From positions 1 through 31,562 of IMG/VR virus record IMGVR_UViG_3300042923_001200: DNA of 31,562 nt; one strand, given 5' to 3'. The notes below the pieces were generated by a model. That model was not told the origin of the DNA. It saw only the letters and a program-made list of their open reading frames with translations, and did no database searches. Within the stretch, counting starts at the first letter, position 1. The number at the start of each line of letters is the position of its first letter. This document shows positions 1 through 31,062 of this stretch, in pieces. The translations under genes were made by a program, and so were the position numbers. The DNA comes from a virus.

Positions 1-52
1 CTGTTTTCACGCAAAAAATCCGTTTATAAAATTTTTAAAAGGAGGAATTTAT

Positions 53-1007: not shown

Positions 1008-1520
1008 ATGCCAAGAAATGCTCAGCCCATAGAAGTTATCAAGGGTAATGGCAGAAGCCATCACCTTACAAAGGCGGAAATTGAGAGGCGAAAAGCTGCT
1101 GAAATTAAAATAAAAAATAAGAATTTTAAAGTAAGTGATTTAGTGATGCTGGATCCAAGAGCTCTTGAGGAATTTAAGAAATTGAAGAAATTATATAAGG
1201 ACCTTGAATTTGTAGGAGCCTTGGATGAACACATAATAAATCAATACTGCTTAGCAGTTAGTGAATTGGATGATTTAATCTTTGCTCTAAATTTTGCCAG
1301 ACAACAGATGCGATATGGGAGCATAGAGAATCAAAAACTTGGACTCAGTTCATTTATGGAGATCGATGTTGAGATAAGAATGAAACGTCAAGAAATTTTG
1401 AGGCTATCCGATAGGCTATATCTCAATCCTGTAGCAAGAACTAAGAATGTACCAAAGAAACCTGCAGAGGAACCACCGAAGAATAAGTTTAGTAAGTTTG
1501 TAGGTGGTGCTAGTGGATAG
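1008..1520 (+). CDS. terS: Phage terminase small subunit, P27 family
   Basis: 170 residues, preceded by AAAGGAGG. The protein recognises the packaging site and brings viral DNA to the large subunit. It has the P27-type pattern: a basic N-terminus with a PIEVIKGNGRSHHLTKAEIE-like opening, a helical middle that starts around the LDPRALEEFKKLKKLY segment, and a basic C-terminus. It starts the late operon and overlaps the large-subunit gene by a few codons. No HNH nuclease gene lies directly upstream, unlike many cos-type Firmicute phages. Assignment rests on sequence character plus position. Confidence 0.88.
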   Translation: MPRNAQPIEVIKGNGRSHHLTKAEIERRKAAEIKIKNKNFKVSDLVMLDPRALEEFKKLKKLYKDLEFVGALDEHIINQYCLAVSELDDLIFALNFARQQMRYGSIENQKLGLSSFMEIDVEIRMKRQEILRLSDRLYLNPVARTKNVPKKPAEEPPKNKFSKFVGGASG

Positions 1521-3252
1521 AATAGATAGGGCTACCAAGTATGCTATTGATGTTGTTGAAGGACGAGAGGTTGCTGGTAAACTTGTTATATTAGCATGCC
1601 AAAGACATTTAGATGATCTTGAAAGAGCAAAACTTGCTCCTTATAAATATGAATTTGATATTGAAAAGTCTCTGCGAATAATTGATTATGCAGAGACTTT
1701 GTTTATTGCTGAAGGTGAAGAGAAAGTCCAGCTTAAACTTTATCCGTTCCAGGACTTTATCTTAGGATCCTTGAACGGTTGGGTTGAGAAGGGAAGCGGT
1801 TACCGCAGATTTAGAACTTCATATATTCAACTTGGAAGGCAGAATGGTAAATCCTTTCTCAATGGTATACTAGGAACTTACTATGGTAACTTTGATGGAT
1901 ATAATTATGGCCAGATTTACTGTACTGCTACAAAAGCAGATCAAGCCAAAATTGTATATAACGAAATGGTCAAATTCATAAATTCTGATGTTGATCTGAA
2001 AGAATTATTTAAGGTCCAGGAGTATAAGAGTACCATCGAATGCCTTATTACTAACTCAGTAATAAAAGCACTAGGAAGAGATACAAAGTCCATCGATGGT
2101 TTTAGACCTTTACTTGGTATAGTTGATGAATATCACGCTCACAAGGATAATCAGATGTACAAGCTCCTTGAGGGTGGTATTAAGAAGATGAAGCAAGCAC
2201 TCATTTCTGTTATAACCACTGCAGGCTTTGACCTTAACGGACCCTGCTATGAGTTATATGAATTTTGTTGTAATTTGCTTAAAGGTGTATTCAGTAATGA
2301 AACCCAGTTCGTGTATATAGCTCAGATGAATGAGGAGGATGATATCTGGTATCCTCAGAACTGGATTAAAGCAAATCCAACTTTAGCTTTTGATAGCGCA
2401 GCCCTTGAAAATCTTATTCCTATCGCGGATACTGCAAAAGCAATGGGCGGTTCTACGTTAAGAGATTTCATGACTAAACAACTTAATATTTGGGTGCAAC
2501 TTACTGACAACCAGTATATGAAAAATTTTGATACTTGGAAAGCTTGTGCTTGTGATTTTAATCTTGAGGATTTTATAAAATTTTATGATTATCGAAAGTG
2601 TTGGGTAGGTCTTGACCTTTCCTCTGGAGGAGACCTTACAAGCTTGGCTTTAATTATTCCGTATAGTGTTGATGGAGTGAGAAAGTATTATATACACTCT
2701 CATAGCTTTATACCTAAAAATCGAATGGATGAGCATATTAAGACAGATAATGCCCCTTATGATATGTGGCACAAAGAAGGTCTTTTGACTCGTACGGAAA
2801 CACTAGGGGGGATAAAGACAGATTATAAATATATCATTTCTTACCTTAAGGACATAATCAAAAAAAATAACCTTGAGGTAGCCATGATATGTTATGATCC
2901 GCACAATGCAGATGCTTTTCTGTCAGATCTTGAGGAACTAGGTTATGATACTATGATGGTCGTACAATCTGCGAAGAACCTTAATGATGCTACTCAAGAC
3001 TTTAGGCTCGAAACTGAAGCAGGGAATATAAGCTATTACAAAGGTAATAAGCTGCTTACCTGGTCCATAGCCAATGCGAAAACTGTTAGTAATAGCTTTG
3101 GTGAAATTAAGATTGATAAAGACTTAAGGTTTAAGAGAATTGACCCAGTGGATGCCGTAATAGATGCTTATAAACATGCTATGAAAGCTGAATCAAATTA
3201 TAATGCTAACAAATATGCTACTGATGATTTCTTAAGCAAATTATGGGGGTAA
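1513..3252 (+). CDS. terL: Phage terminase large subunit (Terminase_1 family)
   Basis: About 579 residues, a full-length packaging motor. It has an N-terminal ATPase with a Walker A-like segment LGRQNGKS (near residue 110) and Walker B LLGIVDEYH (near 205). The C-terminal RNase H-like nuclease has acidic residues in VGLDLSSGGD, ICYDPHNAD and DAVIDAYKHAMK. It pumps DNA into the prohead through the portal and cuts concatemers. The GTG at 1513 is chosen because AGGTGG lies 5 bases before it; an in-frame GTG at 1504 has no better site. Either start overlaps terS, so the genes are probably translationally coupled. This family is usually found in cos-type phages. Confidence 0.95.
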   Translation: MDRIDRATKYAIDVVEGREVAGKLVILACQRHLDDLERAKLAPYKYEFDIEKSLRIIDYAETLFIAEGEEKVQLKLYPFQDFILGSLNGWVEKGSGYRRFRTSYIQLGRQNGKSFLNGILGTYYGNFDGYNYGQIYCTATKADQAKIVYNEMVKFINSDVDLKELFKVQEYKSTIECLITNSVIKALGRDTKSIDGFRPLLGIVDEYHAHKDNQMYKLLEGGIKKMKQALISVITTAGFDLNGPCYELYEFCCNLLKGVFSNETQFVYIAQMNEEDDIWYPQNWIKANPTLAFDSAALENLIPIADTAKAMGGSTLRDFMTKQLNIWVQLTDNQYMKNFDTWKACACDFNLEDFIKFYDYRKCWVGLDLSSGGDLTSLALIIPYSVDGVRKYYIHSHSFIPKNRMDEHIKTDNAPYDMWHKEGLLTRTETLGGIKTDYKYIISYLKDIIKKNNLEVAMICYDPHNADAFLSDLEELGYDTMMVVQSAKNLNDATQDFRLETEAGNISYYKGNKLLTWSIANAKTVSNSFGEIKIDKDLRFKRIDPVDAVIDAYKHAMKAESNYNANKYATDDFLSKLWG

Positions 3253-19481: not shown

Positions 19482-19507
19482 ACCGGTTAACCCCGGTGTT
19501 ATTTTTT
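19482..19507 (+). terminator. Terminator after the lipoprotein gene
   Basis: CACCGG (19482-19487) pairs with CCGGTG (19494-19499) around TTAACC, followed by TTATTTTTT. The opposite strand lacks a comparable T run. The leftward regulator gene ends inside this hairpin. Confidence 0.8.
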
Positions 19508-19705
19508 ATATTTTCTAAATTCAACTAGGTCAAAAGGACATACATCTAAAGCTCTTGCTATTTTAAAAAGTAGAGTGAGAGTTATGTCATATTTACCATT
19601 TTCAACTTCACTTAAGAAACTTTGACTTATACCAACCTTTTGGGCTAACTGTGTTTGTGTTATGCCATTTCTTCTTCTAAATCTCTTTATCCTTAGTGAA
19701 AACAT
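19499..19705 (-). CDS. Xre-family HTH regulator
   Basis: About 68 residues. The start at 19705 is chosen because GGAGG lies 5 bases upstream; a longer frame to 19798 would run through its own promoter. The protein is a single HTH_3 domain: SLRIKRFRRRNGITQTQLAQ, VGISQSFLSEVENGKYDI, LLFKIARALDVCPFDLV. It has no dimer or protease-sensing domain. It diverges from the ribbon-helix-helix gene, and its likely operator lies in the space between them. Confidence 0.85.
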   Translation of the reverse strand: MFSLRIKRFRRRNGITQTQLAQKVGISQSFLSEVENGKYDITLTLLFKIARALDVCPFDLVEFRKYKK

Positions 19706-19817: not shown

Positions 19818-19838
19818 TTAAAGGGGTGAGGTGAATTT

Positions 19839-19994
19839 ATGCTCGTACATAGAGAAAGAATAAGCAACTCAATAGATAAAGAATTGTATAGAAGACTTAA
19901 AAAATTATCAGAAGATACCCGGGTACCTATAAGCAAGTACCTGGATGAAGCTATAGAGGACCTTTTAAAAAAACACTCTCAACAAAAGAAGTAG
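19839..19994 (+). CDS. Ribbon-helix-helix DNA-binding protein
   Basis: 51 residues behind GGTGAGGTGA. The sequence fits the RHH_1/CopG fold: the strand ERISNSIDKELYRRLKKLSE, then the turn TRVPISKYLDEAIEDLL. These act as dimers, usually as repressors. No toxin gene follows it, so an antitoxin role is not supported. The position beside the attachment site and opposite an Xre gene suggests control of cargo or integration genes. Confidence 0.85.
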   Translation: MLVHRERISNSIDKELYRRLKKLSEDTRVPISKYLDEAIEDLLKKHSQQKK

Positions 19995-20279: not shown

Positions 20280-20586
20280 CTGTCCTCTAACTGTCCTGGA
20301 ATCGTAGTTTTAAGTATTTGATATTCCTTTATATTCTAGTAATAAATAACAAGAATGGCTACAATGCACATGTTATAGAAATATAATAAATCATATTCAG
20401 CTCAAATAGAGGTCTGCAAAACCTCTACCCCCAGTTCAAATCTGGGTGGCGCCTCCAAAGAGTAAACCCTTGGAAACACTCAGTTCCAAGGGTTTATATT
20501 TAACTAAAAACTTAACATCTAAAATGGTCTATCTGTCCTGTATCTGTCCTATCCGCGAAGTAGGACAGATGAATAACTTAGGACAG
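20280..20586. repeat. Six CTGTCCT arm-type repeats around the attachment core
   Basis: Copies of CTGTCCT on the plus strand lie at 20280-20286, 20291-20297, 20533-20539 and 20544-20550. Inverted copies (AGGACAG) lie at 20562-20568 and 20580-20586. Two are on the cargo side and four on the integrase side of the core, the arrangement of arm-binding sites for the N-terminal domain of tyrosine integrases. Confidence 0.85.
20464..20495 (+). terminator. Phage-carried terminator for the rebuilt tRNA-Cys gene
   Basis: AAACCCTTGGAA (20464-20475) pairs perfectly over 12 bp with TTCCAAGGGTTT (20484-20495). It starts seven bases after the tRNA CCA end. After integration this segment would lie directly behind the restored tRNA-Cys gene and end its transcript. 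Confidence 0.8.
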
Positions 20587-20591
20587 AAAGA

Positions 20592-21791
20592 TTATTTAAC
20601 CTGATTGACTGCTGTGCTGAAAAGCTCGGCAGTCGATTTTTTTATGTCTTCATTTACATGGATGTAAATATCATCTGTGGTCGATACTCTGCTATGGCGA
20701 AGCCTTTTGGATATTTCTTGACTTCTGGCGCCATTTGAATACAATATTGTGGCATGAGTATGTCTCAGACCATGGAAGGTTATCTTCTTACAACCTAGAG
20801 CTTTAACAGCACTTGTAAAAGCTTTTGTAACGTAAAGTGGACGAAGAGGACGACAATCATCCCAAGAGCATACATAGGTAAATTTATTCTCATTTTTTTT
20901 AGTGGCATCTTTTATGTTTACTACTTTACTAACCTTATCAATACCGGATAGAGCAACTTGTCTTCTATACTCTTCTTCTAGAACTTTAGTTAAATCAGAC
21001 GTTAAAGCCACGCTGGCTTTACTGGCTTCTGTCTTTGGATCTTCTAGGGCTAGCTTCTTTTCTTTCTGTACCATGTTATTATTTACTTCAAGATATCCTT
21101 CCTTTAAGTGCACATCTTGCCAGCGCAAGGCACATATCTCACCTTCTCTTAAGCCTGTATGATATGCGATAAATGCTGGAAGATAAATCTTTTTATCTCT
21201 CACAGCTTCTAAGAATGCTGTAGCTTCTTCTATGGACCAATAACTTATAGTTCTGTTATCATCTTCGGGAGATGTAGCATAGGCAGCTGGGTTCTTAGCT
21301 ATCATATCCCAAGCAACTGCTTTATCAAGCGCTTGATGCAAAACTTTATGGGTTTTTAATATCGTTCCGTCCATGTACCTTCTTTTCTTATTGCCATTTT
21401 TTAAAATCCTCATTTCTTTCTTCAAATCAGAGTAAAATCGCTCAATTATAGGGGCTTTTATTTTCTCTAGGGGTAAATGTCCTAATTGCTTCTTTATACA
21501 ACCACATAATGTCTTATAACGCTTCTGCGTTTGATATGCAGTGTTAGTTATGACATAGGTATCGAACCAATAATCCAAGTACTCAGAGAGTTTCATAGAA
21601 CCTTTTAAATCTAGTTCACCAGTCTTGTAAGAAGTTAAAATCCCTGCTTCCCAGAGCTTTGCTTCTTTTAAGGTTTTCTTACTTAATGGTTCAAATAACT
21701 TTGTCTTACGTATCTTCTTATTAGTAAGAGGGTCTTTTCCTAGATATACCTCGACATAATAACCTTTTTCCGTTTCTCTTATAGCCATCAT
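20592..21791 (-). CDS. int: Tyrosine-family phage integrase
   Basis: 399 residues from ATG 21791 (AAGGAGG lies 5 bases upstream); the open frame extends to 21932 but that part overlaps the next gene and has no start signal. An N-terminal AP2-like arm-binding domain (residues 1-60) is followed by a core-binding SAM-like domain (65-165). The catalytic domain has Arg215 in HTGLREGEICALRW, His340 and Arg343 in FHGLRHTHAT, His366, and nucleophile Tyr376 in DDIYIHV. It catalyses recombination between the adjacent attP and a host tRNA-Cys gene. The gene is complete, so integration ability is likely intact. Confidence 0.96.
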   Translation of the reverse strand: MMAIRETEKGYYVEVYLGKDPLTNKKIRKTKLFEPLSKKTLKEAKLWEAGILTSYKTGELDLKGSMKLSEYLDYWFDTYVITNTAYQTQKRYKTLCGCIKKQLGHLPLEKIKAPIIERFYSDLKKEMRILKNGNKKRRYMDGTILKTHKVLHQALDKAVAWDMIAKNPAAYATSPEDDNRTISYWSIEEATAFLEAVRDKKIYLPAFIAYHTGLREGEICALRWQDVHLKEGYLEVNNNMVQKEKKLALEDPKTEASKASVALTSDLTKVLEEEYRRQVALSGIDKVSKVVNIKDATKKNENKFTYVCSWDDCRPLRPLYVTKAFTSAVKALGCKKITFHGLRHTHATILYSNGARSQEISKRLRHSRVSTTDDIYIHVNEDIKKSTAELFSTAVNQVK

Positions 21792-21846: not shown

Positions 21847-22233
21847 TTACCAGGCTGCTCTAACGATTTCAATGAGTTTATTTGGATCGTTTTTAGTGCA
21901 GCTCTTGGTGAATTTATTGGCTTCATCTTCAAAGATTTTTATATCGCCTTCTTTACCTAGGTGCGAGTATATATGCTTAGCTTCATGCCACAATGTTTTA
22001 AGTTGAGCTTCTTGTGATAGTGAGCTATTTATTATCATTAAACATTTTCCGTTACATCCAATATAGGTAAGCCCGTGAAGCGTTGATAATTCTGTAAAAA
22101 CTATTCTTACTGAGGAGTCTTCTTCTAATCTTCTCATATATTGACCAACATCAATTAATTCTTCCTTAGTCAAACCCAATCCCCCTTTATGCACATAACC
22201 ATAGAAAGTCTTATTGGCTGCTTTCTTTTTCAA
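21847..22233 (-). CDS. ImmA/IrrE-family metallopeptidase
   Basis: Up to 128 residues. The zinc site HEAKH lies at about residues 82-86, with a downstream Glu in FEDEANKF. ImmA-type proteases cleave a paired Xre repressor to induce the element, and the paired repressor gene lies directly upstream, overlapping by 23 bp. The longest start is TTG 22233, which has no clear ribosome site. An internal TTG at 22173, behind AAAGGGGG, is an alternative that keeps the whole active site. Substrate pairing with the upstream repressor is inferred from the gene order. Confidence 0.9.
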   Translation of the reverse strand: MKKKAANKTFYGYVHKGGLGLTKEELIDVGQYMRRLEEDSSVRIVFTELSTLHGLTYIGCNGKCLMIINSSLSQEAQLKTLWHEAKHIYSHLGKEGDIKIFEDEANKFTKSCTKNDPNKLIEIVRAAW

Positions 22234-22567: not shown

Positions 22568-22585
22568 AACCGCCCTCCAAATAAC

Positions 22586-22717
22586 TATTTCGCTATAACT
22601 AAATAATATAGAATATATTTCGCAAAGTCAAGGTATTTCGCGAAATAATAAGCTTGTACGATATAAATTACTTAAATAGTGCAATTTAGCGAAATAGTGA
22701 CATTGAAAGTATTTCGC
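22586..22717. promoter_or_regulatory. Repressor operator array with TATTTCGC half-sites
   Basis: The 8-mer TATTTCGC occurs at 22586-22593, 22616-22623, 22634-22641 and 22710-22717, and inverted (GCGAAATA) at 22640-22647 and 22689-22696. Positions 22634-22647 form a perfect 14-bp palindrome. A weaker copy (AATTCGCT) is at 22748-22754. Sites lie within or beside both divergent promoters, as expected for a lysis/lysogeny switch. Confidence 0.85.
22603..22631 (-). promoter_or_regulatory. Leftward repressor promoter
   Basis: On the minus strand, TTGACT (22631-22626) and TATTAT (22608-22603) are separated by 17 bp. An operator half-site (22616-22623) lies within the spacer, allowing autoregulation. 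Confidence 0.8.
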
Positions 22718-22731
22718 TTTAACGATAATAT
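22703..22731 (+). promoter_or_regulatory. Rightward early promoter
   Basis: TTGAAA (22703-22708) and TAATAT (22726-22731) have a 17-bp spacer that contains the operator half-site TATTTCGC at 22710-22717. It would transcribe the Cro-like gene and the early operon when the repressor is lost. Confidence 0.75.
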
Positions 22732-22781
22732 TTAATCACGACATATAATTCGCTAAAAAGAAATAGTGAGGAGGTGAAAGC

Positions 22782-29483: not shown

Positions 29484-29513
29484 AGGTGTGCGCACACCTC
29501 CAGACGTGGAGGT
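29484..29513 (+). promoter_or_regulatory. Two overlapping hairpins masking the methyltransferase ribosome site
   Basis: Hairpin 1 is a perfect 16-bp palindrome AGGTGTGCGCACACCT (29484-29499). Hairpin 2 pairs ACCTCCA (29496-29502) with TGGAGGT (29507-29513), which contains the GGAGG ribosome site. They share bases 29496-29499, so full forms exclude each other. The palindrome could instead be a protein operator. Confidence 0.6.
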
Positions 29514-29517
29514 TGAA

Positions 29518-31062
29518 ATGAAACAGTTAAAAATATTTGATGAAATCATAGTTGATAACTTCGCCGGTGGCGGTGGAGCCAGTACCGGTATAGAGTTAGC
29601 AATAGGACATAGCGTGGATATAGCGATTAACCATGACCCAGCAGCAATAGCAATGCATAAAGCAAACCACCCCGAGACAGAACACTTTTGTGAAAATGTG
29701 TGGGAAGTTAATCCTGTTAAAGCAGTAAAGGGGAGACCAGTAGGACTAGCGTGGTTTTCGCCAGACTGTAAGCACTTTAGCAAAGCAAAAGGTGGTAAAC
29801 CCGTAGAAAAGAAAATCCGAGGCTTAGCATGGATTGTACTTAAATGGGCAGCACTAGTTAGACCTAGGGTGATAATGCTAGAGAATGTAGAAGAATTTCA
29901 AACATGGGGTCCTTTAAATAGACGAAGACACCCTATAAAGAGTAAAAAAGGACAAACGTACTGGAAGTGGAGAGGACAGCTTGAAGCCTTAGGTTATGAA
30001 ATTGATTCAAGGGAACTAGTTGCAGCTGATTACGGAGCTCCAACAAAGAGGAAAAGATTCTTTATGGTTGCCCGATGTGATGGAATTCCTATAGTGTGGC
30101 CGAAACCGACGCATGGTGATAGAAATAGTGAAGAAGTTATAAAAGGATTATTAAAACCTTATGTACCAGCTGCTGAAATTATTGATTGGGATATTCCTTG
30201 TAAGAGCATATTTGGAAGGAAGAAGCCACTTGCAGAAAATACTATGAAAAGAATTGCTAGAGGATTACAAAAGTTTGTCGTTGATAACCCAGAGCCATTC
30301 ATAATGCAGATAGGACATACAGGGTTCACGAAAGATAGAAATAAATCAATTAATGAACCATTATCTACAATTGTATCTAAAGCAGAACATTGTTTAATTA
30401 CCCCAACTCTTATTCAATATCATTCAGAGACAACAAAAGATGGAGTAAGAGGACAATCGATACAAGAACCAATAATGACTTTAGATAGCTCTCCAAGATA
30501 TGGCTTAGTAAGTGCTTTTATCAGTAAATATTATGATGGAACCTATAAAGGTGCAGGCAGTAAGTGCGATGAGCCACTCCATACAGTCACAGGTAAAGAT
30601 CATAACGCATTAGTAACTGCCCATATCATTCAGATGAATAACAATATGATTGGTACAGATATGAGAGAACCTCTAAACACAATAGTGGCAGGACCAGGAC
30701 ATATAGGCGAAGTAAGAGCTTTCTTAATTAAATACTATGGACAAGGGATAGGGCAGGATATCAAAGATCCATTAGATACAGTTGTCAGTAAAGATAGATT
30801 CGGATTGGTTACAGTTGCTGGTATTGAATATCAAATCATTGATATTGGACTAAGGATGTTGGAACCACATGAGTTATTCGCTGCTCAGGGGTTCCCCAGC
30901 AATTACATAATAGACCATGACGATACTGGCAAGCCATATCCCAAGACAGCACAAGTAGCACGTTGCGGAAATGCGGTACCGCCACCATTTGCTGAAGCAT
31001 TAGTAAGGGCAAACCTTCCAGAGCTGTGCGAAGGCAATGGTAAGTTTAGAGAAGTAGGTTAA
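29518..31062 (+). CDS. C5-cytosine DNA methyltransferase with repeated central region
   Basis: 514 residues from ATG 29518; the frame is open from 29488, but the ribosome site GGAGG fits 29518. Motif I is VDNFAGGGGASTGIE. Motif IV is AWFSPDCKHFSKAKGGKP, with catalytic Cys84 after Asp where most families have Pro. Motif VI is LENVEEF, motif VIII is KRKRFFMVAR, motif IX-X is QGFPSNYI and RCGNAVPPP. It transfers a methyl group from SAM to cytosine C5; the target site cannot be read. Between VIII and IX, about residues 265-440 hold five copies of an EPLxTVxxKD-like unit. No restriction enzyme gene is adjacent, so it is probably an orphan protecting phage DNA. Confidence 0.95.
   Translation: MKQLKIFDEIIVDNFAGGGGASTGIELAIGHSVDIAINHDPAAIAMHKANHPETEHFCENVWEVNPVKAVKGRPVGLAWFSPDCKHFSKAKGGKPVEKKIRGLAWIVLKWAALVRPRVIMLENVEEFQTWGPLNRRRHPIKSKKGQTYWKWRGQLEALGYEIDSRELVAADYGAPTKRKRFFMVARCDGIPIVWPKPTHGDRNSEEVIKGLLKPYVPAAEIIDWDIPCKSIFGRKKPLAENTMKRIARGLQKFVVDNPEPFIMQIGHTGFTKDRNKSINEPLSTIVSKAEHCLITPTLIQYHSETTKDGVRGQSIQEPIMTLDSSPRYGLVSAFISKYYDGTYKGAGSKCDEPLHTVTGKDHNALVTAHIIQMNNNMIGTDMREPLNTIVAGPGHIGEVRAFLIKYYGQGIGQDIKDPLDTVVSKDRFGLVTVAGIEYQIIDIGLRMLEPHELFAAQGFPSNYIIDHDDTGKPYPKTAQVARCGNAVPPPFAEALVRANLPELCEGNGKFREVG

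What the first reader, a model, noticed from the sequence alone, without database searches (positions are those of the whole stretch)
20280..20587. Intact attP inside the window: free or permuted genome, or tandem prophage joint
A 50-bp tRNA-Cys 3' fragment is flanked on one side by phage cargo genes and on the other by the integrase gene, with arm-type repeats on both sides. In a single integrated prophage these two sides would be about a genome apart. So the molecule is circular, a permuted phage genome, or has two copies in tandem at tRNA-Cys.
Basis: partly seen in the sequence, partly recalled or inferred. Interest (0 to 1): 0.65.

Follow-up and report, generated by a model that had tools for sequence, protein, structure and literature searches.

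The report
Ordinary tRNA-Cys attP of temperate phage
The segment is the normal attachment site that a temperate bacterial virus uses to insert itself into its host's cysteine-tRNA gene; it lies in mid-contig because the contig reads like a phage-particle genome, which is what one expects of such a phage.

Summary
Bases 20408-20458 are the 3' part of a tRNA-Cys gene (anticodon arm to CCA) with no 5' half before it. Phage genes lie on both sides: lysis and cargo genes on the left, a tyrosine integrase on the right. Six copies of CTGTCCT flank it, two on one side and four on the other. Two prophages whose integrases are about 70% and 63% identical lie next to intact tRNA-Cys genes in the expected orientation. 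One of them carries the same AGGACAG repeats in the same place. So this is an attP for tRNA-Cys.

The window's first base falls inside a conserved block between HNH endonuclease and terminase genes (the cos position), and the gene order matches Geobacillus virus E2, Paenibacillus phage Fern and Fusobacterium phage phiHugo. The right end stops before the HNH gene, so the contig is incomplete. A tandem prophage or replicating circle cannot be excluded from one sequence, but nothing calls for them. This is a new member of a well-known kind.

The parts
20408..20458 (+). attP core: tRNA-Cys(GCA) 3' part, anticodon arm to encoded CCA
20280..20297 (+). P-arm sites: two CTGTCCT 11 bases apart
20533..20550 (+). 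P'-arm sites: two CTGTCCT 11 bases apart
20562..20568 (-). P'-arm site CTGTCCT, inverted; AGGACAGATGAA also in L036
20580..20586 (-). P'-arm site CTGTCCT, inverted
20462..20497 (.). strong hairpin directly after the tRNA 3' end, probable terminator of the rebuilt tRNA gene and of the converging integrase gene; the same position has a hairpin in L003 and L036
20250..20275 (.). terminator-like hairpin closing the cargo side
20592..21791 (-). tyrosine integrase, 3' end facing attP
1..40 (.). left end of contig, inside the conserved HNH-cos-TerS block (probable cos end)
1008..3252 (+). terminase small and large subunit genes (HK97-like TerL)

Best explanation
The segment is the attP of a temperate tailed phage of a low-G+C bacterium, probably a Firmicute. 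On infection the linear phage DNA circularises through its cohesive ends. The integrase binds the CTGTCCT arm sites through its N-terminal domain and the core through its catalytic half, and recombines the core with the host tRNA-Cys gene. Because attP carries the tRNA from the anticodon arm to CCA, the host gene is rebuilt, with a phage hairpin just behind it that probably terminates it. The joint is intact in this contig because the contig is most of a linear cos virion genome in virion gene order: cos, terminase, head, tail, lysis, attP, int and repressor, early genes, and then HNH, which is missing here. Shown: core, arm repeats, integrase, gene order, left end in the cos-like block. Inferred: strand exchange, arm binding, termination, cos cleavage.
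For: Core and absence of a 5' half. A chimera of the L003 tRNA 5' half with the window core is read by ARAGORN as tRNA-Cys(gca), while the window alone gives none. Prophages L003 (integrase 70%) and L036 (63%) abut intact tRNA-Cys genes with the integrase on the tRNA's 3' side. L036 has AGGACAG twice in its P' arm, 2 of only 3 copies in 6.5 kb. Six arm sites in about 310 bases, beyond chance. Catalytic-type residues (R219, H344, R347, H370, Y380) are invariant among three integrases. Base 1 lies in the conserved block between HNH and TerS. Same layout in the linear phage genomes Fern (9-base 3' cos, PMC6070908), E2 and phiHugo.
Against: The cos cut was not shown with reads; it is placed by homology only. 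The right end is not at cos. No close relative of the window was found, and the exact host attB was not found. The P' arm of the 70%-identical integrase in L003 does not carry the CTGTCCT motif.
Confidence: 0.83

Rival explanations
1. The contig derives from excised, replicating circular or concatemeric phage DNA inside cells rather than from packaged linear DNA; attP is intact for the same reason.
For: Same joint expected; the record does not reach cos at its right end.
Against: An assembly of circular DNA would pass through the cos position; here the left end falls within a few bases of it. No end overlap.
Confidence: 0.1
2. Tandem double prophage at tRNA-Cys: the joint between two integrated copies has the sequence of attP.
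For: The joint sequence would be identical, so the sequence alone cannot exclude it.
Against: No host DNA and no attL or attR in the record; contig starts at the cos-like block, which a prophage array would not favour.
Confidence: 0.04
3. Assembly artefact: an integrated prophage whose attL and attR were merged through the shared 51-base core.
For: The core would be repeated at both ends of a prophage and is short.
Against: Assemblers usually break at such a repeat; contig has virion order with an end at the cos-like block and no host flank.
Confidence: 0.03

Closest known systems
Prophage in IMGVR_UViG_2654587701_000002 (L036)
   Same: integrase 63% identical, beside an intact tRNA-Cys gene; AGGACAG arm repeats and a hairpin directly after the tRNA
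   Different: integrated (attL side seen only); tRNA sequence differs; other shared genes at 40-56%
Prophage in IMGVR_UViG_3300038313_000158 (L003)
   Same: integrase about 70% identical, beside an intact tRNA-Cys gene; hairpin directly after the tRNA
   Different: no CTGTCCT motif in its P' arm; integrated
Paenibacillus phage Fern, Geobacillus virus E2, Fusobacterium phage phiHugo
   Same: linear phage genomes with terminase first and a minus-strand integrase in the middle; a repressor gene follows it in Fern and E2; HNH annotated last in Fern
   Different: attachment sites not examined here; proteins only distantly related (TerL 50% or less)

Membership tests
tRNA-gene attP of a tyrosine integrase | core matching the 3' part of a tRNA gene, without the 5' part | tested here: met
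tRNA-gene attP of a tyrosine integrase | adjacent tyrosine integrase with catalytic residues and arm-binding domain | tested here: met
tRNA-gene attP of a tyrosine integrase | arm-type repeats on both sides of the core | tested here: met
   motif shared with L036. Binding itself not tested
tRNA-gene attP of a tyrosine integrase | related elements integrated at the same tRNA gene | tested here: met
   L003 and L036
tRNA-gene attP of a tyrosine integrase | the phage's own host attB known | tested here: inconclusive
   exact 48-base search in species-representative genomes gave none
HK97-like cos phage (HNH + TerS + TerL) | HK97-like TerL with TerS beside it | tested here: met
HK97-like cos phage (HNH + TerS + TerL) | genome end in the conserved block between HNH and TerS | tested here: met
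   left end only
HK97-like cos phage (HNH + TerS + TerL) | HNH gene at the right end | tested here: inconclusive
   none found in the window with the L004 and L005 HNH proteins; the right end of the genome is missing
HK97-like cos phage (HNH + TerS + TerL) | cohesive single-stranded overhang | not testable with these tools
   needs reads or run-off sequencing
Circular or terminally redundant record | sequence repeated at both ends | tested here: not met
   no end overlap

The most novel reading that the evidence does not exclude
The record derives from a tandem double prophage at tRNA-Cys, with the second copy joined at attP.
Probability: 0.04. Interest if true: 0.25.

Novelty: new member of a known kind. 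Interest (0 to 1): 0.12.

Why it matters
It gives a clean attP and integrase pair with mapped arm repeats for an uncultured temperate phage, and predicts its attB (a tRNA-Cys whose acceptor 5' strand should be close to GGCGCCA), which could help to name the host. It does not change what is known about phage integration.

Tried and rejected
An exact search for the core in species genomes and in viral contigs found nothing. The integrase in species genomes found nothing. Nucleotide relatives of the region in named phages: none. Circle closure by end overlap: none. Contigs that would continue the window's right end towards HNH and cos, sought through the methylase, gave methylase relatives in other phages only. 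Rfam gave only a sub-threshold tRNA match at the core and unrelated chance matches. No attR copy of the core was found in the records of L003 or L036.

Full report
Observation. Window 20408-20458 reads AGAGGTCTGCAAAACCTCTACCCCCAGTTCAAATCTGGGTGGCGCCTCCAA, which is tRNA-Cys(GCA) from the anticodon arm to CCA. No full tRNA is found in the window. The 27 bases before the core match tRNA-Cys 5' halves at only 5 positions, and shuffled windows never come near the observed 46/51 match to a tRNA-Cys 3' half. Six CTGTCCT sites flank the core at 20280-20297 and 20533-20586: two pairs with copies 11 bases apart, plus two inverted copies. The window holds only three other copies, and the cluster exceeds all shuffles. 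The integrase follows on the minus strand, its 3' end towards the core.

Independent support. Two other contigs carry integrases about 70% and 63% identical next to intact tRNA-Cys genes, with the integrase on the 3' side of the tRNA as the attP predicts. The second prophage, L036, has AGGACAG repeats between its integrase and the tRNA. In all three sequences a strong hairpin directly follows the tRNA 3' end, so the phage probably brings its own terminator for the rebuilt tRNA gene (inference). Joining the L003 tRNA 5' half to the window core gives a sequence that ARAGORN reads as tRNA-Cys.

What molecule. The record is a virus record of 31,562 bases, without end overlap. Its first base aligns with L005 base 1806. 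This lies in a block (GGTAGGGGG ... GACCGC..GCCCC / CTGTTTT.CGCG) found between the HNH gene and TerS in L004, L005 and the prophages L006-L024 and L026, and recognisable by eye at the end of Geobacillus phage PK3.5. Cos phages of this type have their cohesive ends at this position. In Paenibacillus larvae phages the 3' overhang CGACTGCCC stands just before base 1 and TerS starts about 50 bases on (PMC6070908; Fern's record ends in CGACTGCCC). HK97 gp74, an HNH protein, promotes cos cleavage (PMC9410871). The gene order terminase, head, tail, lysis, attP region, int, repressor, early genes is that of the linear phage genomes E2, Fern and phiHugo. The right end stops in an open frame before any HNH gene, so the record is incomplete; from L004 and L005 at least about 0.8 kb is missing (an estimate).

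Verdict. The conclusion that the molecule must be circular, permuted or tandem is too narrow: a plain linear cos virion genome explains it with less. Tandem prophage and replicating circle stay possible at low probability and need reads to decide. The finding is ordinary phage anatomy, correctly spotted.

Noticed in passing
22583-22767: Cluster of TATTTCGC / GCGAAATA repeats between the minus-strand HTH repressor gene and the first plus-strand early gene; looks like repressor operators.
   Followed up: partly
29488-31062: C5 cytosine DNA methylase gene, about 80% identical to methylases in viral contigs that share little else with the window.
   Followed up: partly
21850-22233: Minus-strand gene between integrase and repressor with an HExxH-like stretch, perhaps an ImmA/IrrE-type peptidase; no Pfam match; a 56% relative sits in the same place in L036.
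   Followed up: no
L006:8123-8806: Prophage-borne ORF that resembles a manganese catalase or spore-coat CotJC-like protein, directly before the HNH-cos-TerS block (identity recalled, not searched).
   Followed up: no
19499-19705 and 19838-19993: Small minus-strand HTH regulator and a short ribbon-helix-helix-like plus-strand ORF next to attP on the cargo side; possible accessory or excision regulators.
   Followed up: no
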